NCBI GenBank assembly: GCA_963971425.1
Contig: OZ020526.1
Coordinates: 4,553,976 to 4,617,975 of the forward strand
Length of the DNA stretch: 64,000 nt
Source of the DNA: Bryoerythrophyllum caledonicum
Taxonomy: Eukaryota > Streptophyta > Bryopsida > Pottiales > Pottiaceae
Reading direction: 5' to 3'
A model generated the notes under the pieces. That model searched no databases. It was not told the origin of the DNA and saw only the letters and a list, made by a program, of their open reading frames with translations. Shown in pieces: positions 453 to 43,286 of this stretch. The position numbers were made by a program, and so were the translations under genes. How positions within the stretch are numbered: the first letter of the stretch is position 1; each line of letters begins with the position of its first letter.

Positions 453-488
453 GGAGTAGTTTAGTGTGTTGTTGACATAGTTTAGTTT

Positions 489-1060
489 TGACCATTTTTT
501 ACTTCTGTTTACGGGGGTTTGTATAGGTGTTGGTGGGGCCAGTTTTGTGTATAGTCGGTGTATGTTTAAATTGTCTATTAAGGAGGTAAGTTCAGCAAGT
601 TGTTCTAGGGAGCCAAGGATTTGATTTTGATGATGTACGCATAGTATTTGTAGTGTAGATGGTTCGATTCGGGGTTTTTTTAACTCGGGTGGAATAGTAG
701 GTTCTTCGTATGGTATTGTGTCTGCCTCGAATATTGCAATGATATGGGAATCTGGAAATGGGTTTGAATGTTGGTTGTTGTTTTGGTATTAATTGTTGTT
801 CGGTATGATGATGATTGTATTTGTATTATTTGGGTCGTGTTTGGCGGCAAGTCTAGCCCAATGTATGGTTTGTTCCATGTCCTCCTCGTTGTGGGGGTGA
901 GCTATACCGTTACCAATCCATTTATAGTCAAAGGCCTTGCCTAGGGATCCGAATATTTTGTCCCTTTCATAAGGTGAGTAGAATTTTTTTAGTTTGGTAG
1001 AACATGTGACCGGGGAGGAAAAGTATGATTGTTCGATGTTAAAGGATGAGATTAGTGAGT
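489..1060 (-). pseudogene. LINE ORF2: conserved domain of unknown function between chromodomain-like segment and RNase H
   Basis: After a frameshift near 1061 the minus strand stays open and encodes a segment with motifs SPVTCS, KFYSPYERDKIF, AFDYKWIGNGIAHP and IIIIPNNN. It continues through FPDSHIIAIFEADT and EEPTIPPELKKP. Copy 2 (42260-42660) encodes the same series with substitutions (for example FYSSFERDKIF, IIITPDTNWYQ, FLDSHIIALYEADT), so the block is conserved at the protein level. One TAA near 790 stands where copy 2 has a Trp codon. I do not recognise the family. The arrangement of a G-x-A-H-P motif followed by a hydrophobic strand ending in P-x-x-x-W faintly recalls Rossmann methylase-like domains of other LINEs, which is only a suggestion. 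Confidence 0.6.
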
Positions 1061-2350
1061 CTAAAATGGTAGTGGGTATTGTGTATTGCGCATTTTCTGG
1101 GGGTCAGTTTTTGGTATTCCGTATTTATATCTTTGGTATAGCCATATTAGTTCGGTTTCAAAAGGTTGGATCATTGGTTCAATGTTTGTAGGGGTTTGTA
1201 ATTTTGTATTATATTGATTCCATAACCATTGGAGTCGATTAACAGGGATGGTGTGTAGATGTCGGCCATTTTCTTCATATAGATGTGCTTGATTATTATT
1301 TATTTGAATTGTGTTTGAGGATGTAAGGATATCCTTTTCAGGATTACATTTTGTTGTGTGGATGTTTAAGAGTGGGATAATTATGGGTGGTGTTACGGAT
1401 CTTGAGTCTAAGAATTGTTCTTGGGGATGGTGGGCTAGGATGATATCCGAGTATGTTTTGTTTTGAATTTTTTGGTAATATTGTTTTAATTTTTCGGTGT
1501 TATGTGTGGAGGAATTGGTATCATGTCGTGGAAAAAGGTCTCTTTGGGGAATCCATTTATTGTATGTATTATCATTGTGTTGCCATTGGCATAAATATTT
1601 TGTGTAGGTACTTTGTATGTTATTTGTGTCTCTGTGTTGGATATGTTTATGGCGTATGATGTTATCAATCGGATATGTGGTAGGGTTTTTGGTGATGTAT
1701 GATGGGGGACGGGGATGGTATGTATGTGGGGGGTTAGGGGAGTTGATTAGTGTGGGGGTATTTCTTGGGATGATGTTATTGTTGGGGGTGATGAATGAGT
1801 CTTTAAGTATGTGAGAATATGGGTGTATGTTACAAGGAGTGTGACATGTAATGGAGCAAGTAGGGTGGCAAAATAATTGTTTAGCAATATTTAAGGCACT
1901 TTTTAATAGTTTGGATGGGGTGAAATGGTAGGTTTTGAAGTCCTCATTGTTCATGATGTATGTGCCGTTGGATAAAGTAATTAAGGTTAGTTCAAAAATA
2001 TTTTTTGAGAGGAGTTTTTGTAGAAGCTTTTGGGAGAGTTGGGCATTGAGTGTGTTGTGGTTTAATGTTTCTTGGCACCATAGTATTTCTAGTCATGTAG
2101 GGTTGATGAGGAAGTTTGGGAGCGTACTTTTAAGGTGGACTTTAGCTATATGTTTGAATAAAAAGAGTGTTCGTGTTATTGGTGATCTTATGCAATCGCT
2201 TTTTTTAATTCTGGGTATGTATTTGGCTCCACCGTATTGGCCAAGGACATATTGAGTTAATCCATTATACGGAGTATATTTTTCCAAGTCTACCTTTATC
2301 GTTTAACGCATTTTGTAGTTATTCGCCTATACATCGGAGATACGCATTTT
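1061..2350 (-). pseudogene. LINE ORF2: post-RT linker and chromodomain-like segment
   Basis: Between 2350 and 1955 the reading continues from the RT through frameshifts. Phrases such as FGLEAFSLKNAY and LNDKGRLGKIY are typical of the region after LINE reverse transcriptases. A 297-codon open frame (1954-1061) follows. Its residues 94-142 resemble a chromodomain: YPIDNIIRHKHI, then YLCQW, then NTYNKWIPQRDLF, matching the Y-V-E-K-I-L / YLVKW / NTWEP-x-x-L pattern with the aromatic-cage positions. Copy 2 retains YLCQW and KWLPQRNLF. The remainder (HHPQEQ... VNRLQWLW) is conserved in copy 2 but not assignable. Chromodomains tether some retroelement integrases to histone marks; whether this one does is inference. 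Confidence 0.66.
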
Positions 2351-3838
2351 TTAGGGAGAAAGCTTCAAGTCCAAATAGGTTATGTGGGAGTTGGGTATTG
2401 CATTTGACATACATTTTGGTAATCCACATATGTTTTTTTGTATGGCTATTATTTTTTTATCGAGTTTTTTGATAGCTGGCATAGAGTATGGTACTGCGTA
2501 GAAACTGTATGCCACACCTGGGCGTAGTACGGTATCAACCATTTTTATTTTTTGTTTCATGGTGGCCGGGCATGTTGTTAGTTCTATGCATTGTTTGATG
2601 AGTTTTGTGGTTGTAGTGTGAATTTGGATTTTCCATTTTAGTGAGGAGACAAGATTTGTACCTAAGTATATGTATGGTTCATTTTGGTGAAGTGTGGGGA
2701 TTGGTTGATTGCGGTAATTGATGTTAGAGGCTTGCATTAGGGCTTTGAAAGTGGTAGGGTTCAATTTGGATTTGTTCGGGCATCCGGTAGCGGCACATTT
2801 TGGGACACCTACGTCCATACCGGCCCATTTACAATATCTATCAATTTTATTGAGTTGTATTTGTATATGTTTGAATTTATTAGTTATGACGGCGAGGTCA
2901 TCTGCGTATGCGGCAGAGTTTATTTTAACTTGTGATGTGCCAAACGTATATCCGTGGTTGCCTCGTTCTAGCCATCTAAATAGTGGTTCTAAAAATATAA
3001 TGAATAGATACAGGCTAAGAGTGTCTCTTTGTATGGTTCCTCTTTGTATGGGTAAAGGTTTTGTTTTCCCAAAGTGTTCACCAATATAGTAAGTGGAAGA
3101 CCGGGAGTAGATGTTTCCTACAAGTGTAGTTGCATCTTTTGGGTAGCCAAGGTCCATCATTATTGCTAGTAGTCGGGCATGGTCTATTGATCCAAAGGCG
3201 TTTTTAAAGTCCACGTATAATATGTTTTTAAAGTCCACGTATAATATGTATATATCTTGGTTAGAGAATTTTGCGTCTTCTAGTGCGGCTATTATCGTCT
3301 GTATTTGTCGAGCAGTACTTCTTTCTGCTCTAAATCCTTCTTGACTATCATGTAGGATTTTGAATTTTTTGCCGTATGAGGATAGTATAGAGGTGAGTGT
3401 ACTAGTGAAGAGTTTGTACATTGTGTTAGCTAGTGCAATTGGCCTATGGTTGGGTAGCATAGATGGGTCACCTTTTTTGTATAGTAAAATTGTTGCACTT
3501 GATTTCCATGTGGTCGGTATTTGTTTTTGTTTATAGCAGTGAGAGAAGAATAGAAATAGTAATTTATGAAATCTTGGAGGCATGTTTTTGAGTATTGAGT
3601 TTGGTATGCGGTCTGGGCCTGGGGCTTTGTTGTTACCCAGATTTTGAAGGCATGTGTCGTATGTGGCTCTATTAAGGTATTGATGTAGTGGAATTTCTGG
3701 TTCACCTCTTTTGTCCAGGGTATATCCATCTAGGTCATGCCATGGGTATTGGCGTACTTTGATGTTGTGATTGGTAGTTACATGTTGGTACTGTTGGTCT
3801 ATTGGTTTTTGTTTGTTGGTTGAATATTTCATTCGCAA
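2351..3838 (-). pseudogene. LINE ORF2: reverse transcriptase domain
   Basis: A 495-codon open frame encodes the RT fingers, palm and thumb. Visible motifs are NNKAPGPDRIPN (LINE-specific motif 0/1), RPIALANTMYK, the motif A string YVDFKNAFGS, RGTIQRDTLS and the catalytic AAYADDLAVI. The polymerase Asp residues are all present. Motif A is preceded by an exact extra copy of eight codons (ILYVDFKN) caused by a 24-bp tandem duplication at 3201-3248. The frame overlaps the endonuclease frame by about 100 bases in another register, so one indel near 3740-3838 separates domains that should be one polyprotein. It stops at 2351 although homology continues in another frame. The enzyme would perform target-primed reverse transcription. 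Confidence 0.93.
3201..3248 (-). repeat. 24-bp perfect tandem duplication in RT motif A
   Basis: Two exact adjacent copies of a 24-base unit (3201-3224 and 3225-3248) add eight codons in frame. They double the segment that carries the first catalytic Asp of the reverse transcriptase. Confidence 0.95.
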
Positions 3839-6005
3839 TGTCTTCCGGGTTAGTTAGAATATTATTAAATTGATCTGTGATACAATCTAGTGGTAGGGAT
3901 TCTAGGTGTTTAAAAACTTTTCTGTTAATCTTCTTAGGGTTGATTTCGTGTAGTTGTCTGTATTTTGAGATGGCTTTTTTAATGTTATCTTTCGTGTGTT
4001 TTGAGGTTATTTTTCTAGCTTGTATGTTGGCATTTTTTGCAATTAGTGCGATGTCTTTTACCCATGTATCATGAGGCATATCCGGGGGCGGTAGGGTGGG
4101 AATTTGGGTATGTTGTAGAGTTAGTAGTTCATTGCATATGGGGTGGTTGCGCCATTGAGAATTATTTTTTACAAGTCTTATAGTTTTTCGTATAACATGG
4201 TATCTAGTAAGATGTTGTTTCCAAGTTTTAGAGAGTTTGCGTGGCAGATAACCTCCTTGTTGAGATGTTCTATTTGTCAATTGGGGTATTGGGTGGGCTT
4301 TACAAGTTTGTTCTAGTGTGTTGGAGATTTCTTTGATGAGTGTGTCTAGGGTTTCACATGCTTCTTGCCATTGTGCTTGTGTTAGTTGATTGTTATTTTC
4401 TAGAGTATTTATGAGGGAGTCTATTAGCATGGATTGTTCTTCAAAGAATTTTGTGTTGAATTTTTCTAAGTTATCTTTTGGGATGGGGTTAAATATGCAT
4501 ATAGTGTCATTTTTTAGAATTGTAGGCGTTCTATTAATTAGAGTATTATTTGGTATGTGTAGATGTATAGGTGAGTGGTCCGAGTTGAGAATAACATCTT
4601 TGTTTGTTGTAGAGGTGTATTGTGTATTATTGTTGGTGTTTATATAAAATCCATCTATTAGACTCCAATCGCTGTAATTATAGCCGCCTTGTCTGGAGAA
4701 TTGTATATCGGTGTCTATATAAGTAAAGTTTAAGTTTTCTGTGAAGTGGCGCCATTGGTGGTCTATGGTTTGGGGAGGGGTGCTATGGTTTCCATTTTGT
4801 CGTCCAATTAATGCTATATCTCTATTAAAGTCTCCGCATAGTATGTATGTGTGGTTGGGGTTGTTATTTATTTGAGATGTTATAGTGTTTTGTATATCAT
4901 TAATGAATCTAGTATCTTCGGGGTGAGATGGCATATACATGTGGAGAACTAGCCATGGTTGTAGTGGATAATTAATGATTTTGATTATTTGAAGGTAAGG
5001 GGATATGTGCATTGGGGTGGGGATTTTTTTGATGTTGCCCGGGAAAGCGTATTTATTATGTATTAATGTAAGAAGACCACCGCGTCCCGGTGTGTATGGT
5101 CTCCGTTGTTGAATACATCTTGTGAGTGCATGTGTGTTATTGAAAATGAGTTTATAGTCTTGAAATAAGTTTTGTATATATTTTGTGGATTTTGTGGCGG
5201 ATATTTTTGTTTCTTGTATAACTATAATGGGTGGCGGTGTGTTTGTATGTGTGACCAACGTTTGTAAACTAGGGAGGGCGGTGTTTAGAGAAGAGGCGTT
5301 CCATGTGATTATATATGTATTTTCTTGATTTTGATTATTGATTTGGTTTTGTGGATGTAGGTAAGGGGATGGGGGGGGTGGGTGGGTATATTCTGGTATT
5401 CGGTCAAGGCATTTTAGTGATTCAGTAATAAAATTGTTGGGAAGGTATGGAAATTTTTGTTTCATAGTTTCTTTTGATGGTGGTACATGATGATTGTGTA
5501 TAAAATCATATAGTTCTTTGTGTATTGATGTTTTGTGGTTTATAATATTTTGGTTGTTTTCAATGAATGATATATAAGGGTGTGGGGTGTTAATGTGTCT
5601 TTCGGGAGGGTTTTGTAGATTAGCAAGGGAATTTAGTAGTGCATTAGTCCATTGAGTTATGTTTGGGCTTTGTTGATTTAATATTAAGTTACATTCGTCT
5701 ACGTGTGGGTGGATTGTAATTACTATGGCGTATAGGATATGTGGTGAGGGGAGTTCGTTATGTTGTTGTATATATTGAGTAATGTGTGGATGTGTGTTGG
5801 CGTATGATAGGTGTAGTGTATGTGTGGGTTTTAGTATAGGTGCAAATGATTGGGCAATATGTCTATATTCCAGTTGTAGTTTGATTGTGTTTGGTATGAA
5901 ATAAATTTTGGCATTTTTTTGTGTTGTGTTGGGTGTCTTTTTAGTACATTTGGCATAGGTCCTGAATTGGTTTCTATGTCTCCTCCGAGTATTAGTAGTA
6001 GTTTA
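3735..6005 (-). pseudogene. LINE ORF2: N-terminal region and APE-type endonuclease
   Basis: The frame from 5465 to 3735 contains an apurinic/apyrimidinic-like endonuclease. The visible motifs are ITWNASSL (catalytic Asn), IQETKI (Glu-Thr-Lys), CGDFNRDI (Asp-x-Asn), SLIDGFYI and NSDHSPIH (Ser-Asp-His). All expected catalytic positions are present. The same frame stays open upstream without a Met to a stop near 6009, adding about 180 codons, and more basic, lysine-rich coding appears in another frame toward 6200. The true start therefore lies upstream and has been disrupted, or translation begins by reinitiation or frameshifting. The enzyme nicks target DNA to prime reverse transcription. A C-terminal basic linker leads into the RT. 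Confidence 0.9.
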
Positions 6006-6009
6006 TAAT

Positions 6010-6869
6010 GTGGTGGTTTGTTGTTATGTTTATGTTTAATGGTTATATGTTTTTTGTTTTCCTAGTGTATTTTTTTGTTTCGTTTTTGATTTTATCCTTG
6101 TATTGAAGGATGCGAGTGTTATGTTTTTTTTCTTTTGAGTGGGATTCCCTTGAATTGATTTTTTTTTGTTTGTTGTTTTGTTTTGGATTATTTTTTTGTA
6201 TGTTATTTTTGTTAATTAGTTTAGTGTTTGTTTTTGTACTTTGGTTTTTGTTTGTTTTGATGTATAGACATTGACTTGTATTTTTGCATCTTTTTTCATA
6301 TGTGGTGGATGTTGTGTTTATGTGTGTGTGTGTGTGTGTTGTGGGTAGTATTTCTATTTGTGTATGTATATGTATTTATATGTATTTTTTGATGGTTTGT
6401 ATGTATTTTGGTATCAGTGTTGGTTTTGGTGTTTGTATTAATATGTATTTCAATATTTATACTAGTGTTTATACATGTATTTGTATTTGTATAGAGGGCA
6501 GTATTTTTGTTAAGTATGGTATATGTATATGTATTTGTATATGTGTTATATACACAGTATTTGGTATAGTATTTGTATTTATTTTTGTTTTAATACAGTA
6601 TGAGTATATCATACATAGTTTGTATGGCGTATACTCTGCGGGATACATGTCTATGTATACTATTATGTATTCTACCATGTATTCTATTGTGTATATCGCT
6701 ATATGTACGGTGGATAATACTGTATAGAATACTAGGAGTGTTACCTTGTATACTACTATGTATTTTGGTTCGTATAGTGTATAGATATTGTAATTACAAG
6801 GTGTATATACCTTATATATGACATATATTGGTATTTTTGTACTACCTTTTTCCTTGCGGTCTTCAATCT
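6010..6869. repeat. AT/TG-rich spacer between LINE ORF1 and ORF2
   Basis: Low-complexity sequence with GTGTGT runs and many TATGTATTTGTATATG-like phrases. Open frames on both strands here (6284-6873) are compositional artefacts. It separates ORF1 from ORF2 of the LINE. Confidence 0.7.
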
Positions 6870-8638
6870 TCACATTTTTGGCGGTCCATCTTCAATTCTT
6901 GGTGTGCTCATAGCTTCGGTTAGTGCTTGCAATGACGCGAGAGTTGCACTCATCGTGTGTTGAATACTAAGCATTTGGGTCTTCAACTCGTCACTCTTCT
7001 TGTCCGCATATGCTTGTGTTTCCAACCGTATTTTTTTGTTGCTTTCCTCCACCGCGGTCTCCACTATGGCAAGGATGTCTTTCTTCGTGATGTTTTGAGA
7101 TGTCTCCTCCATCTTGAAAGCTTCCACGGTGTTAACAATGGCTTTGTTAACGTCGGTGAAGCCAAATTCCTCTATTTGCTCCTTAGTAGGAGGCTCAATT
7201 CCATCAAGGCTTCTCCTATGTGGAGCAAAGTCCACATAGTAACCTCCTAGCTTGATGACCTTGCCCACAAATCTCCTATAGATTATAGCATTTGTACAAT
7301 GGACATTGGCACTTCCATTGTGTCTATGTCCATTGTCGCGATGGAACCATATGTGATTTATGTTACCCATTCCCATAACATTGTAAATTTCAGCCCTAGT
7401 GTCTTCAACATTCATACGAATAGGCAATTGAGTTAGAGTGAGAGTAATGGCATCCTTCTTTGCCTTACTCTCTCGTACGTTACCACTTAAGGATTCTCCC
7501 GCATTGCCCGTTGGTTGGAGCATCTCGTGGTTGGTAGCAACTTGGTGTAGCTTGATCTTTGCCGCTTGTTGTGGAGTTGGTGCAATGATAAATGCATGGC
7601 TCTCTTCTTTCCCTTTTTGCACACTAGTTACTTCAAACTCAAGCCCACGGTTAAAACTATTGCGAAGAATGTCTACAAAAAGAGAGTTGGCGGAGATATC
7701 TTTGAGAGACTCACTTTTAATTTTTGTGGAAAGATTAGAGTTCCTTGCAATGGCATGATAGCTTTTACATACTTTTCCTATCATATATTGTTTGTCTAAC
7801 TTGAGGATGAAAGGTCTAAGACCTTTGAGGAGGCTTATGCCATCAACCTCGGGTTTGAGAAGATGCAATTTAATCGTGCCCGCCCAAACACCCTTCTTCC
7901 CGGCATTTTTCACACTCATGCAAAGGATGGATGTAGGGTCAATAACCTCATTACCTATTTCTATATTCATGAATTTCAGCCTATCAATCACCAAGGTTTT
8001 GATATCATCATGCATGAGGACAAGATTGCCTACCTCAAAGTGGATGGACACTTGAAAATCAAGGGAAGCCCAGTAGCTTCACTCACCGGGATGTTGAATG
8101 GTATTTGGGTTATGTTGTAGTGTTGCCCAACCGCCTCCTTCCTTGCACAAGGGTATAGGGTTTGGGGGATTCGTGGGAATGCCGGAGTTGCTAGGGTGAT
8201 TTCTTTGGCCTCCACTTCTTTGATTCCTCTTGTTACCATGTCGAGTATGGACTCATCATTGATTAGTGGCTCAAGTCCCTCTTCCTTGGCTATATCCTCC
8301 ATTGCTTGAAATCCCAACCAAAATTTGAAGTAGGGGATATGGGGTTCAATAGTGATCACCATACCTTCCTCCTTGGAACTCTTCTTTTTTTTGCTAGAGG
8401 GAGATACTCCATCTTGGTTTTTTGTGGAGGTAATACTTGGGGACCTCTTGGGCTTTTCACCGGTTGCTTTGATCTCCATGGCATCTCCATACATAAGGAT
8501 TCTTCTGCTGCCCGATTGTTCCATATCTATGCTGTAATGGTTTACCGAGTTGGTGCTGGGGGTAGTTGTGTTGTTATGGGAAGGAATGGGGATTCTATGT
8601 GTGGGAGGGCAGGTCTTTACTGGAGGGAGGGAAGTCAC
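6870..8638 (-). pseudogene. LINE ORF1: RNA-binding-like protein with coiled coil (one frameshift)
   Basis: Two overlapping frames (8638-8030, 202 codons, and 8051-6870, 393 codons) make one protein interrupted by a single register change near 8040. The N-terminal part has a basic stretch with KKKKSSKEE. The C-terminal part has a region ending in NAIIYRRFVGKVIKLGGYYV that resembles an RRM or pseudo-RRM, and then a helical, probably coiled-coil tail (ETAVEESNKKIRLETQ onward). This is the architecture of LINE ORF1 proteins, which bind the element RNA and form trimers. There is no CCHC knuckle. The protein could begin further upstream, because a frame with ATS-type heptad repeats (9104-8595) overlaps its start. 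The family was not identified more closely. Confidence 0.68.
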
Positions 8639-8649
8639 TATGTGGGGGA

Positions 8650-8900
8650 GGAGGGTCGTAATGGGAAGGGGGGAGGTCTCTCACCGCGTGGGGGAGGTCA
8701 TTGGCCATGTAGGGGGGGGTCACTAGGGACAAGGGGGAGGTCGCTAGGCACAAGTGGGAGGTCGCTGGGCACAAGGGGGAGGTCGCTACATGGGTTTGGG
8801 AGGTCGTTAGGCTGTAGAGAGAGGTCGCTACATGAGTTTGGGAGGTCGCAGCTTGCTTTATGGAGGTCGCAGATTGGCTATTGAGGGTCGCAGTCTTGGG
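8650..8900 (-). repeat. Minisatellite of about 20-bp units, GGGAGGTCGCTA type
   Basis: About ten imperfect units of a G-rich 18-23-bp motif (GGGAGGTCGCTA plus spacer) lie just upstream of ORF1. On the minus strand they encode ATSxxxx-type heptads within an open frame (9104-8595), so they may form either an N-terminal extension of ORF1 or leader sequence. Confidence 0.6.
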
Positions 8901-8905
8901 TTGGA

Positions 8906-9644
8906 AGGCCGCGGCTTCTCTTTCAAGTGTCGCTACATTTTTGAACGTTGGGGAGCAGGGTTCTGTCTTGCGACAGGAGGGGTTTATGGAGCTCTGTGTA
9001 GGGTTCGGGAAGTCTAGAGAGGGTGTCCAGGAGGGGTTTGGGAAGTCTATGGAGGTGTGTGAGGTTGAAGAAGGGGGTAGTTTAGCTAGGAGGGGGTGGG
9101 ACAATGAGAGTCGGGAGGGGAGTTCAGTCTGGAGGGAGGGGAGACAGTGAGCGTCGGGAGGGAAGGGCAGAGTTTAAACAGGAGGAGAGGGTGAGAATCA
9201 GGAGAGGAGGGAAGGGGTTCAGATGGGAGGGGGGAGTGAAGGTCGGGAGAAGAGGAGGAGAAGGGTTCAGTTGGGAGGGAAGGGTTAGAATCGGGAGGGG
9301 AGGGGGGGGTTTGGTCGAGAGGGGAGGGTGAGGGTCGCGAGGGTTCGGTCGTGAGGGGAGGGAGGGGGACAGTCTGTAGTGAGGGGGTTTTGTCGGGAGG
9401 GGCTGGGAGGGAGATAGTCTACAGTGAGAGGGGGGAGGTAGGGAGGGAGAGTGAGACAGCGAGGGAGTAGTATTAGAGGTCGGGAAGGTGGGAGGGGGGT
9501 GATTAGAGAGGAGAGAGGGAGTGGAGGTAGAAGGGGAGGGGGGCGGTGAGAGGCGGGGGAGTGGGGCTGTGATGGTGTGAGCTGCAGGAGTGAGGATTGT
9601 GAGGGGAGGAGACTGTGAGGGAGTAGGGAGGTAGTGACAGAAAG
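8906..9644 (-). repeat. LINE 5' leader monomer A
   Basis: First of two long tandem units. It begins with GGCCGCGGCTTCTC and ends with GTAGTGACAGAAAG, and matches monomer B along its length at high identity. The element's sense strand is extremely pyrimidine-rich (plus strand GGGAGG). Tandem 5' monomers act as promoters in mouse L1; the same role here is inferred. Confidence 0.78.
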
Positions 9645-9664
9645 GAGACTGTGAGGGAGTTGGG

Positions 9665-10492
9665 AGGCCGCAACTTCTCTTTCAAGTGTCGCTACGTTTT
9701 TGAACGTTAAGGAGCAGGGTTTTGTCTTGCGACAGGGGGGTTTATGAAGCTCTGTCTAGGGTTCAGGAAGTCTAGCGAGGGTGTCCAGGAAGGGTTTGGG
9801 AAGTCTATGGAGGTGCGTGAGATTAGAGAGGGGGGTAGTTTAGCTGGGAGGGGGGGTGGGACAATGAGAGTCGGGGGAGGGAGTTCAGTTTGGAGGGAGG
9901 GGAGATAGTGAGCGTCGGGAGGGAAGGTGTAGAGTTTAGACGGGAGGAGAGGGTGAAATTCAGGAGAGGAGGGAAGGGGTTCAGATGGGAGGGGAGAGTG
10001 AGGGTCGGGAGAGGAGGAGGAGAGGGGTTCAATTGGGAGGGGGGGTCAGAATCGGGAGGGGAGGGGGGGATTTTGGTCGAGAGGGGAGGGTAAGGGTCGC
10101 GAGGATTCGATCGTGAGGGTTCAATCGAGAGGGGAGGGAGGGGGACAGTCTGTAGTGAGGGGGTTTAGTCGGGAGGGGCTGAGAGGGAGAAAGTCTACAG
10201 TGAGAGGGGGGAGGTACGGAGGGAGAATGAGGGGGTTTAGTCGGGAGGGGCTAGGAGGGAGATAGTCGGCAGTGAGAGGGGGGAGGAAGGGAGGGAGAGT
10301 GAGACAGCGAGGGAGTAGTATTAGAGGTCGGGAAGGTGGGAGGGGGGTGATGAGAGAGGAGAGAGGGAGTGGAGGTAGAGGGGGAGGGGGGGCGGTGAGA
10401 GGCGGAGGAGTGGGGCTGTGAGGGTGTGAGGTGCAGGAGTGAGGATTGTGAGGGGGGGAGACGTGAGGGAGTAGGAAGGTAGTGACAGAAAG
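9665..10492 (-). repeat. LINE 5' leader monomer B
   Basis: Second tandem unit, offset by about 760 bp from monomer A. It is longer because a phrase containing GGGGGTTTAGTCGGGAGGG is repeated near 10159 and 10229. The many runs of three or more G on the plus strand could form G-quadruplexes, with an i-motif on the transcript-sense strand. Confidence 0.78.
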
Positions 10493-15255: not shown

Positions 15256-15555
15256 AAAATTTGTTTGCTATAAAGGGAAAATGAAAGTTTGGAGTGCATG
15301 TTAAAGAAGCCAAGGTCGATGACTTTTGGCTTTACGGATGTTGTTCTTATAAGCAGACCGTTGCATGCTATAAAATGGGAATGAAAGTTTGGAGTGCATG
15401 TTATAGTAGACAAGGTCGGAAACTTGTGGCTTTATCGATGTTGTTGTTATAAACATATTGTTGTTTGCTATAAAGAGAAAATGAAAGTTTGGAGCGCATG
15501 TCACAGTAGACAAGGGCGATAACTTTTGGCTTTATGAATGTTGTTGTTATAAACA
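15256..15555. repeat. Three tandem 100-bp repeats
   Basis: The phrase GCTATAAAG..GAAAATGAAAG recurs at exactly 100-bp spacing (15268, 15368, 15468), each followed by GTTTGGAGTGCATGT and GGCTTTATCGATGTTGTT variants. Non-coding. Confidence 0.85.
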
Positions 15556-16224: not shown

Positions 16225-17177
16225 TTAACCCCTAAGGTACCAAGACAGTTTTACACCAAAAACACTTCAAAATTAATGGATTCTAGTGCAATGAATAAAG
16301 AAGGTAACAAAAACTTTGATTTTTAGTTCCGACCGTAGGATCTCAATAAAGGCCTATTAAATAATACATGTACAAAATTTCATAAACTTTGACCGCATGG
16401 ATTGAAAGATTATAGTGTTTGAAGTCAAGCAAATGATTCATTTTCTTCCCTGCATTTAGTGGATCAGCAAACTTTGACTTTAGTTGGTGTCAAGAAATTT
16501 CACTACACAAGGTCTAAATCTATTACCATCTTGTTAAGCATGACTTAAGCTCCTTACACACCAATTTTTAGAGGTAGAGACAGGGTGTAGCATATTCAAA
16601 ACAAGTGTGCAAGGAGTGGAGGCTCGAAATTTGTTAATTCACACTTTAATTTTTTTTGAACTTAATATGTTTTCGATTGATAATCTGAATGGTCAATAAG
16701 AAGGCTTACATTACATATTGTTGTGGAAAAAATAAAAAGTGAAAAATATGAAGATCTCTAGGTTTTATGTGGAAAAGAAGAAGTTTTTTTGGTACCTTGC
16801 CCAACAATGAGTGACAATGTGTGAAAATGTTTGACTTGGGTTGGTATGCTATTTTTCACTAGAGACAAGAACTTTTTTTTGACAACATAAAGGGAAACAA
16901 TATTACTTGCGAGTACTCAAAATCTCACTTTCGATAGAGTGTCCTATCAAAAGTTTTTGGAGGTGCCCGAGGTGCCCGCCCTCCCCATTTAAAATTCAAA
17001 ACCCTGTAACTTTTTTATCAAATGTCCAATTTAGGAAAAAATTGTTTTCCCACTGAGCTCTTGGTAATGTCTTTCTATAGTAAAAGTTTCAAAGTGGAAT
17101 GTTGGAAATTGACACCATAGGAACCTGACCGATTTTTCAAAAAGCCAAATTTGGACACTTGGTCCTTTAGGGGTTAA
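16225..17177 (+). mobile_element. TTAA piggyBac-like MITE, family B
   Basis: Begins TTAACCCCTAAGGTACCAAG and ends GGTCCTTTAGGGGTTAA. Its interior (ACACCAAAAACACTTCAAAA, then ATTGAAAGATTATAGTGTTT) defines family B, which recurs at 18762, 21601, 37820, 40036, 43609, 44910 and 62601. Confidence 0.85.
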
Positions 17178-28993: not shown

Positions 28994-32842
<3,849 letters not shown>

Positions 32843-33725: not shown

Positions 33726-33746
33726 AAAAGATAATATGTACAAAGA

Positions 33747-33826: not shown

Positions 33827-34845
33827 TGTAAGCTGACAAGCATGCATGAGAATCAAACATTTATTGAGAGTGTAATTAATATGCCACTAGAACATGCTAC
33901 ATTGAATTTCTTCTTTTGAAGTTTGATTTATTACCACAACAATCACATTGCATGGAACAGGTGAAACGGTTGAAAGCGTATACAAGATTCAAGAGGTTTT
34001 TGTGTTGCTTTCTAATGAGAAATGTGACATGACATTAACCTTTCAACGTCGGAGAGGCCCAAAACAGGCCTTTGTTGTTTTCTGGAGAGAAATGTGACAT
34101 GACATTAACCTTTCAACGTTGGAGAGGCCCAAAACGGGCCTTTGCAACAACACCACTCTCAAGGCAACATGGCGTTAGAGGGTTTAGTAGAAAGATTTGA
34201 TTTAGGGAGTATCTAAAAGAGTGACCTAGAAGCTACCATTGTAGACAAAGACAATTTCTTGACAATCACAAGATATTATGCTCTTTTCCTAATTTAAACT
34301 ACCAAATATAATACCTTTGTATTAACTTGTGGAAAACAAATTATATGTTTAACAAAGAAAAAGGGTTTGATTGCTCATGATTTTGTAATTTTGAATGACA
34401 AAGGAACACTTACTCCTAAAAAAGAGAAGAATTTATGTCTTTGAAGGATATCAATGTGAATAAAATAGGTGCCAAGTATTTTTGAAAATATTTTTCAAAA
34501 ATATTGATTTTTTCTTGGTGGAAAAATGATTATGTTTTATTATGTTTGTTTTTCCAAACAATTATTATTAAAAACTAATCCATATTCAGCACTATAGTGC
34601 CAAATCCAATATGGTATCATCTTAAGTCAAATATGATGACCTTGTCCGCATATAGAATTATAAAACTATATTGCATCCTTCAAATTCAAGTATCTTACAA
34701 TCCGTGTGGCCAAAGTTTACAATTTTTTTTAAGTGTCTTCTTGTAGTTCTAAACTTTGAATTTTAAAATTTAGATTAGTATTATAATATCGCATCTAGAA
34801 GAGGCGGTTTTGGGGCAGTTTTGATGAAAACATAGTCATTGTCCT
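33827..34845. other. Intergenic DNA with 70-bp tandem duplication
   Basis: At 34001-34143 a 70-bp unit (AATGTGACATGACATTAACC..) occurs twice in tandem with two or three differences. The rest is AT-rich. 34790-34845 ends like a TTAA-element terminus (GTCATTGTCCTTTAA). Confidence 0.6.
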
Positions 34846-35146
34846 TTAACCCTTTAAGGCTGATGAGCTTTTTTGGCATGCCAGAAACTACTAGTGTTCA
34901 AGATCATGCAAAAAAACATCTACGCACAGGGTACATTTCATTGCGACCCCACTTCACGAAAATCATTGTAATTCGCCGATGCTTGCACGGATTTTTGTGG
35001 CAGTGGTCTCAATAGATGCACATCCTTCCTCCACCTTTATGTCCTCGTTTTTATTTTTGTGGTGGTGGGCCTAGGGATGTAGCATTTGCTATCGAATTAT
35101 CATGCCAACACGACCCAATAATGAACTTTAGGCCTTCAAGGGTTAA
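34846..35146. mobile_element. 301-bp TTAA MITE
   Basis: Begins TTAACCCTTTAAGGCTGATG and ends TTTAGGCCTTCAAGGGTTAA. Confidence 0.72.
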
Positions 35147-36730: not shown

Positions 36731-37144
36731 TCAATTCGCAACATCCACACTTCTGGAACCAACGAAAATCTGATTTGGGTGGTTCACTCTCAACATCGGC
36801 GACGGGGAAGATGGTGGTGAGGATGATGATAGTCTGAGGATGGCGTCTGCCGCGATGAGCTGCATGGTTTCCTCCCAGATGGTCTCCAACCGGCTCCGGA
36901 ACGCGGCCTTCGTCACCGTGATCACGGCCCCCGGCGCCGCCTCCATTCCGAACGCCACCACGCCCGCCGCGAACTCCTCGTCCCAGCTCATCGCCGCACG
37001 ACGACTCTCCTCCTCCTCCTCACTGATGGTCTCGAACCTGCTGCCCCTCCGCGCCCTCTCCACCTTGATCACCGGCGCGGGCAACGTCGCCATGTACAAG
37101 CTCGCAGCCATAGCTCCCGATGGAAGAGCACTTCGGCGTGTCAC
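36731..37144 (-). CDS. Hypothetical small protein, copy 1 of a duplicated GC-rich segment
   Basis: The minus-strand frame encodes up to 137 residues with PAPVIKVERARRG, RFETISEEE, MSWDEE and FRSRLETIWEETMQL. Copy 2 (53267-53638) has the same core with in-frame differences, including one Glu codon lost from the EEE run. The plus strand is also open over the same stretch, so the coding strand is uncertain. The minus frame is favoured because of its acidic/basic blocks, an internal R-x-R-x-E-T-I-x-E-E echo, and one silent change (acc/act) that would be Met-to-Ile on the plus strand. No family is recognised. Confidence 0.38.
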   Translation of the reverse strand: MTRRSALPSGAMAASLYMATLPAPVIKVERARRGSRFETISEEEEESRRAAMSWDEEFAAGVVAFGMEAAPGAVITVTKAAFRSRLETIWEETMQLIAADAILRLSSSSPPSSPSPMLRVNHPNQIFVGSRSVDVAN

Positions 37145-37819
37145 TAGGGTGGTACGACGATGATACTAGGGCGATAGCCGTGTGAAACTGTGTAATGGAT
37201 GCTAGGGCGACGACCATGTGAAACTAGGGTGAAATGGACGAGAAAACAACCCAGTGTGAAGGTCGCCGACTTGAAAGCCAGACTCTCAAACACGCTTCAC
37301 CCCTAGCACTGCTTCTCCCGGAACCTGGTGTGTTTTCATGGCAAAGCTCTATCTTCTAGAACTCCAACCCGATAGCTCAACGTCAGCTGCACAGAATCTG
37401 AATCCCAAAGCGCCAACTATCAAGGTTGAAAGTACTGGACACGAACTTGGAGCTATGACTGAAGGAGTGAGGTTTATGTATCATCGCGATTGAAAAGACG
37501 CGACAGTTGGAAAGCTACGCGTTTCTCTCTAGCTTCGAGTGCTTTGGTGGTGTGTGTTGGCTGTGAAGGTGTCAGGCACGCGCTGGGAAGGAGGGCCGCC
37601 TTGGTTTACAAGGTCGCGCCCAGTTGGCGCAAAGGAGAGATTGACTTGGCTTGGGCACAAAAGTCTCAATCCTTGCTGGAGGCGAGCTTGCTCATCAAGG
37701 ACGGAATATGCGTGTTTTTGCATTCCAAGTACGAATATGTGTATTCAGTTCCACTCACGTATTTCGAATACGTATGAGAGAAGCTGGGTCGGCAATAAAT
37801 GCCGCAAATAGAGTACATC
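37145..37819. other. Flank of the duplicated segment
   Basis: Homology with the 53.7-kb copy continues in patches to about 37340 (CTTCTCCCGGAACCTGGTGT in both). Open frames at 37490-37811 are unsupported. Confidence 0.45.
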
Positions 37820-39067
37820 TTAACAGTGACAGCTACACACCAATGAATAAAGAAGGAAACACAAACTTTTATTTCTAAGTTTGATCGTAGGATCAATTTA
37901 GACTTATAAATTGACGTTTTCACAAAATTTTGTAGACTTTGACTGCACAGATTGAAAGATTTTAGTGTTTGAAATTGAACCACATATTAGAGTTTTCGTG
38001 AAAGTGCTTCACGAATGGGCAAGTCGGGAGGAATATGGTGCGAGAGAGTGTGAGATGTATAAACAGAAAGGAAGAGAGCATGAGGAAATTTCATATTGCC
38101 TTTCTCTGCACCAATGAAATGCAATCAATGTTCTTGGGCCCTACCCCATGCAAGCTAAAGCTCCCCCATAGTACCCTAAGTTCTCACAGGGTTGACCAAT
38201 AGTTCCCCCAAACCTTTCCCAAGCCAAGACACCATGTGCATGTGGTCCAGGTTACTAACATAAGACCCTAAGATTCGGGGAACCTATCCAGAGTATTTTG
38301 GTGACTTTCAGGAAAACTCAATTGGTTCTTCTTTTCCATTTTCAACACTAAAAAAGAAGAACCATACATGGCAGACTTTGACTTCACGTGGTGTTAATTT
38401 TTTGCACTACACAAGGTCTAAAGCCTGTACCATCGAGTTAAGCATGATGTTTGTTCCTGAAACACCAATTTTTAGAGGAAAATGAGGGGTGTAGCATATT
38501 CAAAACAATTGTGTAAGGAGTGGGGGTTTAAAAATTGCAAATTTGTCTTTGTGAACTTAATATGTGTTAGATTGAGAATCCGAATGGTCAGTGAGAAGGT
38601 TTGCACCATATATTGTTGTGGAAAGAATTAAAAAGTTAAAAATATGAAGATCTCTTAGTTTTATATGGAAAAGAAAAAGTTTTTTTGGTACCTTGCCCAC
38701 AATGTGTGACAAAGAGTAAAAATGTTTGACCTGGGTTATGATACTATTTTTCACTAAAGACAAGAATTTGATTTTGACAATATGAATGGAAATAATATTA
38801 CTCGCTGGTATTGGAAATCTCACATTCAATAGGGTGTCGTAGCAAAAGTTTTTGGAGGTGCCTGACATGCCTACTCTCTCCATTTCAAATTGAAAACCCT
38901 GTAACTTCTGCATTGAATGTCGGATTTAGGAAAAATTGTTCTCCACTGGGTCTTAGTAATTCCGTTCTACAGTAAAAATTTCACTGAGGAATGTTAGAAT
39001 TGACATCATAAGAACCGAACCGAACTTTCAAAAGCCATTTTTTGACACTTGATCCTTCAGGGATTGA
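37820..39067 (+). mobile_element. Family B TTAA MITE interrupted by about 370 bp
   Basis: The left edge TTAACAGTGACAGC (terminal Cs lost) and the right edge CTTGATCCTTCAGGGATTGA enclose a family B interior. Unrelated DNA at about 37984-38350 interrupts it. It contains the uninterrupted paralogue (38744-38755) of the LINE copy 2 target site. Confidence 0.7.
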
Positions 39068-40035
39068 TACATGTATACTATACATTGAGTACATATAAAT
39101 ACATGTATTTAGTTATTCGAGTATATGTATTTGATAACCTTAAAGCGGGGTTGCCTTCACCACATTAATAATGTTACTTAGAGTTACGTTGTGATTAGAT
39201 TTTTTATCCTACAACACTATTTGTTTTAGGCGTTCTCTACTGGTGTCAAGGTTTTTTTTTTTTTTTTTTCGTTTCACAATTTTAGCCAGAGTGGCAACAC
39301 AAATTTTTTGGAGACCACACATGTGGTGACACAAAGTTCTCGTGAAACAATTCAAAACCAAATTTTCTCCATAAATGTCTTTTTCAGAGAATCCATCTCC
39401 ATAAACATAGATTTGTACATCCTTTTTGGCGACATGATGAAGTCCCTATTATTCACTAGTAGCAATACGGCAATATGAAAACAACCGTCAATGAAATTTT
39501 GGCGATGTAAAATCACAATTTCCCCACTTTTTGGGAATATTCTTTTCTTGGGAAAAAAAAATCGCCATTTGGTTCCTAATCGGCCAAAAAAATTATAACT
39601 AAATTATTATTTAATTTTTTTTTATAAAAGTTATTAAAAAAAAAACCCTTCAGATCCGTCACTTCCATAGGCAGCCACCGATTTCATAACTGCAGTTTCT
39701 CTGTTACCAATTTTATTTTTATGTTGAGGGCTTTACTAGTGCCAACAACAATCGTGCTCCTTTATGCACCTTCTTCACTCTAAAGACTTTACACTACACA
39801 TCGACAAGTAAACAAATTGGTATTCCGTAATTTACAAGAGTTTACAACTGTTGTTGGAATTGGCAATTAAAGTCACATCACTAAACTTATGGTTGTTCAC
39901 ATATAGTGTTAAGGCTCAAAACGCTTGCAAGAATTCTTTTTTATTGGATTTGCAGGTACCTCACATCCCGTTAGCCCCGTTCTCAAGACTCACGGGCAAG
40001 AGGTCCGCTATTGAGGTGTGGGAGGCCCGCCAAGT
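39068..40035. other. Intergenic DNA with poly-T tract
   Basis: No gene seen; a T-run lies at about 39251-39270. Confidence 0.4.
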
Positions 40036-40347
40036 TTAACCCCTAAAGGACCAAGTGTTAAAAATGGCAATTTGAAGGTTTGGTCACGTTCCTATGTTGT
40101 CAATTTCTAACATTCCTAATTGAAAGTTTTATTGTAGATGCGAATTACTAAAAACTCAGTGGAGAACAATTTTTTCCTAAATCCAACATTTAATTGAAAA
40201 GTTATAGGGTTTTGAATTTTGAACAAGGAGAGCAGGCACGTCGGGCACCTCCTAAAACTTTTGCTAGGACACTATTGAATGTGAGATCTTCAATACTAGC
40301 AAATAATATAATTTCCTTTCATACTGTCAAAATCAAATTCTTGTCTT
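40036..40347 (-). mobile_element. Family B TTAA MITE, first part, split by LINE copy 2
   Basis: Begins TTAACCCCTAAAGGACCAAG and runs in inverted family B orientation to the LINE insertion. It resumes at 43299-43608 and, after a second nested element, at 44527-44650. Its far end is rearranged. Confidence 0.82.
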
Positions 40348-40359
40348 AGTGAAAAATAG
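40348..40359. repeat. Left target-site duplication of LINE copy 2
   Basis: AGTGAAAAATAG, identical to 43287-43298. Confidence 0.9.
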
Positions 40360-40679
40360 CAAGAAGAAGAAGAACTCTGGTCCATGCAGGGGCCAGCGTG
40401 AATAAAGTGTATGTTCATACCACCACTAAGTCCATGTCCACCCAACATGGGTCACTGGTATGGAACTACTTCCCCCTCTTAAGGGTAGACACTATGTACC
40501 ACGTAACAAGAACAAAGAACCGATGATGCAAGGGGGGCAATGTGGGGAAGTTTTTAGTAGGTTTTCAAGGGGGGTCTAGCGTGTCCGAGATGGGTTGGTT
40601 GTTTTTTAGTTTCCTTTTGTATAGGAGTATGGACGTAGCATGTTGAATTGCAATAGTGTTGATATTTGTGAAGGTGGTC

Positions 40680-41260
40680 TTGATTGAGGACATGGGAATT
40701 TTGAATGTTTCTTCAAGGGATGTCATTGAGGGGATAAAGGTGGTGGCTCTAGCAACCGCGTTAATGACAATGCGGGGATCTTCTTTCCATCCGAGTGCTT
40801 GAATATCATTGAGGAGTGGTAGGTATTTATTTGTTTTGTTTGTAATAGCTTCCGGTGAGAATCTATCATTACATTATTTGAATTCAATAAATTGAATAGT
40901 GAGATTCAGGTCAATGTGGGTTGGTGGCGAGTCTTTGTATGGCAGCCCTCTAACACATAACAAGTCGGGTTTAAATTTGGCATTACAATGACATCTTTGT
41001 GCATCGTGTGCATGGTAATAACCATGGGGGAACGGTATTTTCTTGTGGGTTGTCATTAAAGGTTCCGGCATTCATTAGGATAAAACAACAGGATTTGTTT
41101 GATGACACAATTAATTTGCGGATTGCCCACACTGCTTTGTTGTGGCATTTGACAATTAGGGCTTGTATATGAGGTTATGGCATTTGAGTAAAACGTGTAA
41201 CCATGTATCTGGGTCTGTAGTGTTGCATGTTGAACATGTTATGGAAGGGAATCTCTCTAT
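40680..41260 (-). pseudogene. LINE ORF2 C-terminus: CCHC knuckle and restriction-like (PD-ExK) endonuclease
   Basis: On the minus strand, CSTCNTTDPDTWLHVLLKC (about 41238-41180) is a C-x2-C-x9-H-x4-C knuckle. After a frameshift come AVWAIRKLIVSSNKS, then KFKPDLLCVRG and IQFIEFK-stop-CNDRFSPEAITNK, with NKYLPLLNDIQALGW behind. The PD ... E-x-K spacing and the downstream K-x-Y helix match the restriction-like endonuclease at the C-terminus of R2-type and Dualen LINEs, which nicks target DNA. A TAA sits where a Tyr is expected just after EFK. The product ends before the 3' UTR, at about 40580. Confidence 0.74.
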
Positions 41261-41599
41261 GCCAAAGAAGAGTTGTTTACGTGCGTTTCCTATATATTGT
41301 ACCGTGAGGAATTTAATAAGGCACATTTTTGTGAGTCTATGATTATGGGATTTTTCAAAAAGCTAGTGGAATGCTCGTTGTCAATGCTTGTATTACCGGT
41401 CCATTTATCAATATTAGGGATTTTTTTGGTAAGTATTTCCAAATTAGTTTTGAAGTCATGTTCTTGGAGGTATTTATCCAAGACTCTTATGGGGCCTTTG
41501 TCGGGGGTTTTGTGCATAGAGGGCCATTCATATCTATGGAAGTAGTATGGGGTGGCATGGGCGTGTTTGTAGGGTTGTATGACATGTTGGTAGGCTTTC

Positions 41600-41830
41600 T
41601 CTCCACCTTCTTTGTGTTATTTGTCCGCTGGTTTGTTGCCGTCGATGTTTGCGTGAGCTTGGACTTTGTGAAATGTGGTGATTTGTATGCAATTTTGGAA
41701 CATGCCGACCATATGTGTTAGGATAATTTGGGCCGGATAGCTATTGTGTTGAGTGGGGTGTTTTATGTGTGTGTTAAGGAGGTGTAATACATTAATGCAA
41801 TCCGCGAAAATGTATGCCGGTTTGTTGGGC
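41600..41830 (-). pseudogene. LINE ORF2: RNase H domain
   Basis: On the minus strand one frame reads IFADCINVLHLLN and later FHKVQAHANIDGNKPADK. These correspond to the second catalytic Asp region and the KV-x-A-H-x-x-x-x-G-N-x-x-A-D block of type I RNase H. The N-terminal strand with the first Asp is not clear because of stops. RNase H removes the RNA template during second-strand synthesis. Confidence 0.74.
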
Positions 41831-42259
41831 TTTTGTGGATAGCCATCATTTTGGCACTAAGGATGTTTTGGAGTCCGTGTAGTCTTTTGGCAAGTTTAAT
41901 TCTTTTGGCGGGGTTGTATATTCGATAGCCAAATTTTTCTCGGTGCCAATGTCATGGGCTTACTTTGGTTGGTTCTTTGAAGAAACTGTTGGTGTTGTAA
42001 TTAATGTTGGGGTCAAATTTGAGAGGTGTGAGTTTGGTAATTAGGAAGTAATGGAGTTGGAGGGATTTGTGGTGCGAAGTTGTTTATAGAGGGCGTCTTA
42101 GACCATTTTTTATGCGGTTTACATGGGTTAGTGTAGGTGTGGGTGGGGCAATTACTGTGCATACATTATTGCTTTTGAGATTTTTTGCAATTAGTGTGAG
42201 TTGAACGAGGTGTTCTAATGTGCCAATTTCTCAGTTTTGATGATGTATACATAGGACAC

Positions 42260-43286
42260 GTAGGGTTGATGGCTCAAGTGGGGGCTTTTGTATTTTTGGT
42301 GGTATAGTAGGTTCCATGTACGTCATTTAGTCGGCTTCATATAATGCTATTATATGAGAGTCCAAAAATGGGCCCGACTGTGGGTTAAAGCTTTGGTACC
42401 AATTAGTGTCTGGTGTGATGATAATAGTGGTGGCATGACTAGGATCATTGTCTGCCGCTTGTTGCGCCGAATGTATTGCTTGTCAATGTGTTTCTTTGTC
42501 GTTGTAGGGATGTGCAAGGCCTGTTCCGTTTTGCCTATAGTCAAATGCTTTCTCAAGTTAACGAAATATTTTATCCCTTTCAAATGAAGAGTAGAACTTT
42601 GAAATTTGTCTGGAACATGTGATGGGGGATGAAAAGTATGATTCTATTATATTAAAAGACGTGATAATAGAGTCTAGGAGATGGTCTAGTAGTGTGTAGT
42701 GTGCATGTTTAAGGGAGTCATTTTTTGGTGTACAATATTTGTATCTTTGGTATAGTCAAACAATTTTGGTTTTAAATGGTTGGGGTGTTGGTTCAATGTT
42801 AATGGAGGTTTGTAGTGCGTCATGATATTGATTTCACAGCCACTGTAATCTAGCAACCGATATTGTAATTAGGTGTCCACCGTCTCCTTCATGTATGTAG
42901 GCATTGTCTTGTTGTATTTTTATTGTGTTTGTTTGTGTGAGAATGTATGTTTCGGGATTACATTTGGTCGTGAAGATGTGAAGGAGGGGGATGGTGATGG
43001 GCGGTGTAACAAATCTTGTATCTCTAAGTTGTTCTTGTGGGTGATGCAATTTTATTATTTCTATGTAGAAGTTGTTTTGAAATTTATAATAGTATTCTTT
43101 AAGAATTTCAGTGTTATGGAGAGAGGTGTTTCAATTGTGCCAAGGGAAAAGGTTTCTTTGTGGGAGCCATTTTCTATAGATGGTGTTGTCGTGGTGCCAC
43201 TGGCATAGGTATGTTGTGTCTCTTTAGCTTATTGTGTTAGAGTCTACATATTCTCAATGTTTATGGCCGGCAATGTTGTTTATGGG
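42260..43286 (-). pseudogene. LINE ORF2 copy 2: chromodomain-like remnant, linker and unknown conserved domain
   Basis: From the 5' truncation the minus strand encodes the INNIAGHKH remnant, TTYLCQWHHDNTIYRKW and LPQRNLFPWHN (chromodomain-like end). The 71-codon block HHPQEQ...ARLQWL (43049-42834) follows, and then the conserved domain with FYSSFERDKIF, TIIITPDTNWYQ and LDSHIIALYEAD. Each matches copy 1 at the protein level. Several frameshifts separate them. Confidence 0.72.

What the first reader, a model, noticed from the sequence alone, without database searches (positions are those of the whole stretch)
453..43286. A LINE combining APE and restriction-like endonucleases, RNase H and a chromodomain-like module
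Copy 1 shows APE motifs, a YADD reverse transcriptase and a chromodomain-like block (YLCQW ... NTYNKWIPQRDLF). Copy 2 shows the same block, then an RNase H signature, a CCHC knuckle and KPD ... EFK. The dual-endonuclease plan is known from Dualen/RandI of Chlamydomonas (APE, RT, RNase H, RLE, cysteine protease). A chromodomain is not part of that description as I know it. It could direct insertion to marked chromatin. The reconstructed length of about 12 kb is extreme for a LINE.
Basis: partly seen in the sequence, partly recalled or inferred. Interest (0 to 1): 0.92.

Follow-up and report, generated by a model that had tools for sequence, protein, structure and literature searches.

The report
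Giant LINE with cap-methyltransferase-like domain
The window holds two decayed pieces of a very large jumping gene whose intact copies elsewhere in the same genome encode, in one protein, two DNA-cutting enzymes, a reverse transcriptase, an RNase H, a chromatin-reader-like block and a domain derived from the enzyme that methylates mRNA caps; that last domain recurs in most of its long relatives and I found no description of it in such elements.

Summary
Both pieces belong to one LINE family. Intact copies in the same genome encode everything in one frame (3087 aa in 33 of 118 scored matches): 2A-like motif, APE, RT, chromodomain-like block, PCIF1-like domain, RNase H, CCHC, restriction-like endonuclease. 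Copies are up to 99.99% identical; 15 of 17 analysable ones show 10-13 bp direct repeats. One type is 9.9 kb, another, with an ORF1 like that beside copy 1, 13.9 kb. It occurs in 76 of 89 long relatives, between RT and RNase H in all 74 that have both, and a Pleodorina (volvocine) Dualen-like protein nests among them: apparently an undescribed core part of the Dualen/RandI clade. Its catalytic NPPF reads HPHN here and is canonical in 0 of 78 (NPEY in 25): probably a pseudoenzyme here. The chromodomain is sub-threshold in this family (18-21 bits, cut-off 25.1) but over it in one relative at the same place; PHD fingers sit nearby in others. Chromatin targeting and cap binding are inferred, not tested.

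The parts
6870..8680 (-). ORF1 of copy 1, broken into two frames (8030-8680 and 6870-8078); coiled-coil-like C-terminus by eye
   Evidence: 402-aa frame 52.7% identical over 404 aligned positions to the ORF1 of two copies of the longer type, L091 and L092; no Pfam family over cut-off
5957..5986 (-). 2A-like motif GGDIETNSGP of copy 1 (GGDIETNPGP in two intact copies)
   Evidence: frame 5831-6061; intact copies
4566..5309 (-). APE (apurinic-like endonuclease) of copy 1
   Evidence: PF03372 28 bits (over cut-off 24.5), PF14529 21.2 bits (under 27.4)
2660..3469 (-). Reverse transcriptase of copy 1 with YADD; carries a 24-bp tandem duplication at 3200-3249
   Evidence: PF00078 73.8 bits; tandem repeat
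1529..1669 (-). Chromodomain-like block of copy 1 (YPIDNII...KYLCQW...YNKWIPQRDLF)
   Evidence: PF00385 18.3 bits whole frame, 21.1 bits sub-region, cut-off 25.1
441..1190 (-). PCIF1-like domain of copy 1 (one frame change and one in-frame stop); NPPF position reads HPHN
   Evidence: PF12237 42.6 bits; PDB PCIF1 chains as best hits of the family profile; tblastn
43110..43286 (-). Chromodomain-like block of copy 2, 5'-truncated at about 43286
   Evidence: tblastn with relatives
42120..42830 (-). PCIF1-like domain of copy 2 (AHPYN by eye), with stops
   Evidence: tblastn P0021, P0024
41617..41990 (-). RNase H of copy 2, decayed
   Evidence: follows the stretch matched by P0021/P0024; same place as the RNase H of intact copies
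41180..41236 (-). CCHC knuckle of copy 2
   Evidence: C,C,H,C 71/71 in relatives
40877..40972 (-). RLE core of copy 2 (KPD ... E)
   Evidence: D and E 71/71 in relatives; R2 proteins are the best PDB hits of the RLE profile
40364..40400 (-). 3' end of copy 2: weak hairpin and (TTC)n tail

Best explanation
Two dead copies of an autonomous non-LTR retrotransposon of the wider Dualen/RandI clade, with young copies elsewhere in this genome. Shown: a single long ORF2 with 2A-like motif, APE, RT, chromodomain-like block, PCIF1-like domain, RNase H, CCHC and RLE; a (TTC)n 3' tail behind a hairpin; 10-13 bp target duplications. Inferred: (1) the 2A site releases the N-terminal part from a multi-enzyme protein; (2) the RT starts on the 3' hairpin and (UUC)n tail at a nick made by one endonuclease, and the other helps with the second strand; (3) the chromodomain (plus PHD in relatives) holds the complex on marked nucleosomes; (4) the PCIF1-like domain holds the capped 5' end of the element's own mRNA, as a non-methylating reader in this family and possibly as an enzyme in NPEY relatives, favouring full-length copying of its own RNA. 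The confidence given is for the identity and architecture; I put steps 3 and 4 at about 0.35 each.
For: 118 matches scored of 5825 candidates, 33 of the 118 in a 3087-aa open frame without a stop in the match; 99.92-99.99% identity between copies. Domains over Pfam cut-off in an intact copy or slices of it: RT 91.6, PCIF1 44.8, APE 29.7, RNase H 54. RT nearest to R2 then L1 among solved structures; RLE nearest to R2. 76 of 89 long relatives have the PCIF1-like domain; no relative breaks the order APE-RT-PCIF1-RNH-RLE and 56 of 89 have all five. Purifying selection in one pair of copies: dN/dS chromo block 0.017, PCIF1-like 0.129, APE 0.067, RT 0.087, RNH 0.135, RLE 0.105. Direct repeats of 10 bp or more in 15 of 17, mispaired control 8 of 272; 13-bp duplication on the 13.9-kb copy. 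PF12237 is a CAPAM-like methyltransferase and not a WW domain (passage of PMC7641849). Disrupting NPPF reduces the activity of human PCIF1 (passage of PMC6318281); APPA and SPPG are the usual inactive mutants (passage of review PMC10544176).
Against: Chromodomain under the Pfam cut-off in this family; no PDB match for it; hhalign probability only 20.6 and the best of 100 shuffles nearly as high; a four-sequence chromodomain HMM did not find it in the window. By eye and recall, two of three aromatic-cage positions are kept, the third is not. The catalytic motif is lost here, so cap methylation is unlikely in this family, and cap binding is not shown. No cysteine protease found in this family. 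The 3' hairpin is strong in one copy type, moderate in another and not above shuffles in window copy 2.
Confidence: 0.85

Rival explanations
1. The PCIF1-like domain is an active adenine-N6 methyltransferase with an unusual active site (NPEY in relatives, HPHN here), writing m6Am on its own transcripts or a mark on DNA.
For: NPEY keeps the Asn and the first Pro and is the same in 25 of 78; purifying selection.
Against: 0 of 78 have [ND]PP[FYW]; the Asn place is His in 22 and another residue in 27; disrupting NPPF reduces or kills the activity of human PCIF1 (passages).
Confidence: 0.2
2. The chromodomain-like block is not a chromodomain but another small beta fold with a chance W..W pattern; it serves protein folding or RNA binding.
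For: Sub-threshold in Pfam; no PDB hit; hhalign probability 20.6; missed by a four-sequence HMM; Chromo listed in 0 of 89 whole relatives.
Against: 0 of 100 column shuffles reach its hhalign score, though the best came near, 20.6 against 21.3; 14 of 77 slices at 6 bits or more against 0 of 385 slices from elsewhere and 0 of 385 shuffles; relative P0088 31.8 bits, above the cut-off, in two stretches; PHD-like pattern in the same interval in 21 relatives.
Confidence: 0.2
3. An ordinary Dualen element: PCIF1-like and chromo domains have always been there and are known to specialists, or named in papers and databases I could not read.
For: 76 of 89 long relatives carry the PCIF1-like domain; Pleodorina Dualen-like P0137 nests inside; Chlamydomonas SINEs paired with RandI end in short repeats, (ATT)n and (CTTT)n (passages of PMC3747384).
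Against: No such description seen in the listings or the passages; but Kojima and Fujiwara 2005 is not held and Repbase entries cannot be read here.
Confidence: 0.25
4. The parts are chance neighbours: a LINE next to unrelated fragments.
For: In the window the two halves lie 34 kb apart.
Against: Single intact frames join all parts in copies of this genome and in metagenomic relatives.
Confidence: 0.01

Closest known systems
Dualen / RandI non-LTR retrotransposons (Chlamydomonas; Kojima and Fujiwara 2005, recalled, not read; cited in passages of PMC4640811 and PMC3636483)
   Same: APE and RLE both, RNase H, RT; short-repeat 3' tail; RT group containing a volvocine (Pleodorina) protein with Josephin protease
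   Different: PCIF1-like domain and chromodomain-like block not in the descriptions I could read; 2A-like motif; no cysteine protease found in this family; 9.9-13.9 kb
PCIF1/CAPAM cap m6Am methyltransferase
   Same: Sequence over the Pfam cut-off; PDB PCIF1 chains 6irx and 6irv are the best hits
   Different: NPPF replaced by HPHN; embedded in a LINE protein; no separate WW domain reported by Pfam
Chromodomain LTR elements: chromoviruses, and Chronos of oomycetes (passages of PMC5348765)
   Same: A retroelement carrying a chromodomain-like module
   Different: Not an LTR element; block lies between RT and RNase H of a LINE, not at the end of an integrase
R2-type LINEs
   Same: RLE with CCHC, RHN, PD and E; closest solved RT
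   Different: R2 is site-specific and, as recalled, has no APE, RNase H or PCIF1 domain

Membership tests
Dualen/RandI clade | APE upstream of RT | tested here: met
   PF03372 over cut-off
Dualen/RandI clade | RLE (CCHC, PD...E) downstream of RT in the same protein | tested here: met
Dualen/RandI clade | RNase H domain | tested here: met
   PF00075 54 bits in a slice of the intact copy
Dualen/RandI clade | RT groups with Dualen | tested here: inconclusive
   Lies in a group of 84 rows (97/92) that includes Pleodorina P0137; Chlamydomonas Dualen itself was not available and outgroups are few and long
Dualen/RandI clade | Cysteine protease (described for Chlamydomonas Dualen, recalled) | tested here: not met
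   None found by Pfam in P0076, P0077 or ORF1; Josephin, OTU or C48 (names recalled from accessions) listed in 5 of 89 relatives. So I claim the wider clade, not Dualen in the strict sense
PCIF1/CAPAM | PF12237 match | tested here: met
   42.6, 44.8, 39.6 bits, cut-off 31.1
PCIF1/CAPAM | Catalytic NPPF motif | tested here: not met
   HPHN; 0 of 78 canonical among relatives
PCIF1/CAPAM | m6Am activity on capped RNA | not testable with these tools
   -
Chromodomain | PF00385 over its cut-off | tested here: not met
   18.3, 21.1, 17.7 bits in this family; 31.8 in relative P0088
Chromodomain | Fold | not tested
   Structure prediction switched off
LINE using target-primed insertion | Target site duplications and 3' tail | tested here: met
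   15 of 17 with repeats of 10-13 bp, one of them not at the junction; (TTC)n tail

The most novel reading that the evidence does not exclude
A whole clade of dual-endonuclease LINEs carries a captured cap methyltransferase fold as a core part, working on the capped 5' end of its own mRNA (as writer in NPEY lineages, as reader in the HPHN lineage), beside a chromatin-reader slot (chromodomain with or without a PHD finger) that steers insertion.
Probability: 0.3. Interest if true: 0.92.

Novelty: new variant of a known kind. Interest (0 to 1): 0.76.

Why it matters
A domain from the mRNA-cap m6Am enzyme inside LINEs, kept in most long members of the group yet with a changed active site, would tie retrotransposition to cap recognition, which is not part of current LINE models as I know them. 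A chromatin-reader slot in a LINE would make its target choice directly testable. The group also bears on how APE replaced RLE in LINE evolution, because it keeps both.

Tried and rejected
PDB searches with the whole chromo-containing profile and with the block alone gave nothing. A four-sequence chromodomain HMM found nothing in the window or the first eight loci. A viral-contig scan with the block found no relative. The copy-2 'EFK' as a literal (D/E)xK was rejected: the two intact copies read EFT. I first read the PCIF1 motif one residue out of register (AHPH; one search counted it so) and recounted it. A host PCIF1 gene with NPPF could not be sought: that search did not complete. The species was not identified.
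Full report
Setting. The window is G000:C15:4553976-4617975 of a eukaryote-sized genome of 437 Mb in 894 contigs with no name. Of my genome searches two were answered; four fetches of stretches worked.

The observation. On the minus strand, copy 1 (window 0.44-6.06 kb, with an ORF1 up to 8.68 kb) gives Pfam matches to APE (28 bits), RT (73.8 bits), Chromo (18.3 bits, under the 25.1 cut-off) and, above its cut-off, PCIF1_WW (42.6 bits against 31.1). Despite its name this Pfam family is a CAPAM-like methyltransferase, not a WW domain (passage of PMC7641849). Copy 2 (40.36-43.29 kb) overlaps copy 1 over 1.13 kb at 67.7% nt identity and continues through RNase H, CCHC and a PD...E stretch.

Do the parts belong together? 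Yes. A 343-aa query from copy 1 finds 118 scored matches (of 5825 first-look candidates, so a lower bound), the weakest at 1.2e-196; 33 of the 118 lie in an open frame of exactly 3087 aa without a stop in the match, others in frames up to 3686 aa, many in shorter or broken ones. One was fetched whole: element 260-10154 of the L039/L040 stretch, frame 643-9906. It is 99.96% identical over 9895 bp to the copy on C10, 99.92% over 9.9 kb to that on C4 and 99.99% over 9017 bp to one on C3. Copy 1 equals its bases 2801-8389 (86.7%), copy 2 its bases 7223-10154 (69.3%). A second type on C2 (3121 aa; 88.6% identical over its 3' 7.4 kb) is closer to copy 1 (90.3% over 6.0 kb).

Anatomy of the 3087-aa protein: GGDIETNPGP (2A-like) at 738, a degenerate one at 640; APE from 962 (GDFNRD 1122, SDHSP 1206); RT 1566-1952 (YADD 1762); Cys-rich stretch 2103; chromodomain-like block 2160-2239; PCIF1-like 2322-2544; RNase H 2599-2741; CCHC 2864; RHN 2894; KPD 2953; E 2982. 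In the whole protein Pfam reports only RT (91.6) and PCIF1 (44.8); as isolated slices APE scores 29.7 and RNase H 54 bits, both over cut-off.

Length and ORF1. The 3087-aa type is 9.9 kb. One C2 copy is 13,949 bp from the point where its 5' part starts to match two other copies (99.6-99.7% over 3.8 kb) to its 3' end, and carries a 13-bp duplication TGTACTTTCTTTG at both ends; the full lengths of the other two were not checked. It has an ORF1 upstream. The ORF1 of copy 1 (window 6870-8680) is 52.7% identical over 404 positions to that of two such copies. No Pfam family over cut-off fits it.

Insertion. Of 19 further copies fetched at both ends, 17 could be analysed and 15 show direct repeats of 10-13 bp. 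One of the 15 (L060) was matched away from the junction, though a 10-bp repeat also lies at it by eye. Three earlier copies entered in the same script were skipped because their 3' ends lie in another stretch. Mispaired flanks reach 10 bp in 8 of 272. The C10 and C8 copies show 11 and 12 bp by eye. The sites vary. The 3' ends read end in (TTC)n behind a hairpin: -23.8 kcal/mol (z -7.6) in the C2 type, -11.9 (z -2.5) in the C8 type and -8.1 (z -0.65) in window copy 2. Chlamydomonas SINEs paired with RandI also end in short repeats, (ATT)n and (CTTT)n (passages of PMC3747384).

The PCIF1-like domain. A first homologue search gave 25 proteins, a second 51; in 10 chosen for a Pfam scan, 8 have PCIF1_WW over cut-off and 9 RNase H over cut-off, 7 both. 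A nine-sequence profile has PCIF1 chains as its best PDB hits: 6irx E 5.4e-6, 6irv E 5.9e-4, the next hit E 1. The alignment puts PCIF1 ANPPF on AHPHN here. The third search, with the RT region and candidates of about 1.7-5.4 thousand aa, gave 89 proteins. Precomputed Pfam lists PF12237 in 41 of 89 (my count of the table); own profiles, rebuilt once from the hits, find the domain in 76 (one of them weak, P0144 at 26 bits), RT in 89, RNase H in 78, RLE in 76, APE in 63; 56 have all five, 73 have RT, PCIF1-like, RNase H and RLE; no protein breaks the order APE-RT-PCIF1-RNH-RLE; in 74 of 74 that have both, the domain lies between RT and RNase H. At the NPPF place 29 of 78 have N (25 of them NPEY), 22 have H, 27 something else, and none has [ND]PP[FYW] (the 78 include the two frames of this genome). 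Disruption of NPPF reduces the activity of human PCIF1 (passage of PMC6318281); APPA and SPPG are the usual inactive mutants (passage of PMC10544176). So methyl transfer is doubtful here, yet the domain is held by selection (dN/dS 0.129; one pair of copies only).

The RT tree. With 93 rows the PCIF1-bearing proteins lie in one group of 84 rows (97/92). The six in it without the domain are P0130, P0112, P0137, P0091, P0149 and P0154; the last five end 2 to 445 aa after the RT, P0130 alone has RNase H without it. P0160, P0161 and P0162, outside the group, have RNase H but no PCIF1-like domain. Pleodorina starrii P0137 (Josephin, APE, RT; its model ends in the RT) is inside, next to P0089, which has the PCIF1-like domain (99/95). 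P0114 has Josephin and PHD and the PCIF1-like domain in one protein. Outgroups are few and some branches long, so I use the tree only for this nesting. Among solved structures the RT is nearest to R2 (5.8e-27), then L1 (2.1e-15); the RLE profile is nearest to R2 (2.9e-4 for the whole chain, 0.017 for its best stretch). CCHC, the H of RHN, the D of PD and the E are 71/71 in the rows scoring over 80 bits.

The chromodomain-like block. For: in-register hhalign score 21.3, above all of 100 column shuffles, though the best shuffle gave 20.6; 14 of 77 slices before the PCIF1-like domain reach 6 bits with a chromodomain HMM against 0 of 385 slices from elsewhere in the same proteins and 0 of 385 shuffled slices; at 2 bits 26 of 77 against 0 and 5; relative P0088 31.8 bits in two stretches, over cut-off, and Chromo at E 1 or less in 8 of 10 slices that I chose for their look; lowest dN/dS of all blocks, 0.017. 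A PHD-like pattern lies between RT and PCIF1-like domain in 21 of the 76 relatives; both of the two tested are PHD over cut-off. That the PHD lies between two chromo halves is my reading by eye. Against: below cut-off in this family; hhalign probability 20.6; no PDB match; a four-sequence HMM missed it; Pfam lists Chromo in 0 of 89 whole proteins.

Literature. Dualen is described as having both APE and RLE (passages of PMC4640811, PMC3636483). LINE/Dualen is reported as expanded in cryptophytes (passage of PMC12747079). Chromodomain capture is reported for LTR elements (passages of PMC5348765). Searches pairing PCIF1 or PF12237 with retroelement words found no description of such a domain in a LINE (listings, plus passages of PMC7641849), nor did chromodomain, PHD and methyltransferase with non-LTR elements (20 of 92 papers listed, 9 papers; listings only). 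The 2005 paper itself is not held, so novelty is provisional.

Judgement. A real, young, very large LINE of the wider Dualen clade, with a core domain that I believe has gone unnamed there. The architecture is shown; cap binding and chromatin targeting are proposals.

Noticed in passing
window 49275-51737 (+): piggyBac-like transposase (DDE_Tnp_1_7, 103 and 135 bits in two abutting frames) interrupted by one in-frame stop (the name piggyBac is recalled).
   Followed up: no
window 32112-32430: (CT) microsatellite of about 160 units, 99% matches.
   Followed up: no
window 15266-15555: 100-bp tandem repeat, 2.9 copies.
   Followed up: no
window 16225-16927: 83% similar to the flank of another LINE copy (L051): another dispersed repeat.
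   Followed up: no
proteins P0104 and P0142: Metagenomic relatives that also list PF00145 (C5 DNA methyltransferase, name recalled) besides the PCIF1-like domain.
   Followed up: no
proteins P0086, P0110, P0091, P0114, P0137: Three kinds of cysteine protease (PF02902 C48, PF02338 OTU, PF02099 Josephin; names recalled) in different relatives: the protease of this group may have been swapped more than once.
   Followed up: partly
L047, frame 591-9953: The 3121-aa frame repeats part of its N-terminal region (a degenerate 2A-like motif and start of the following block, then the intact ones).
   Followed up: no
L045 flanks: By eye, one young copy lies inside another copy in the opposite orientation.
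   Followed up: no
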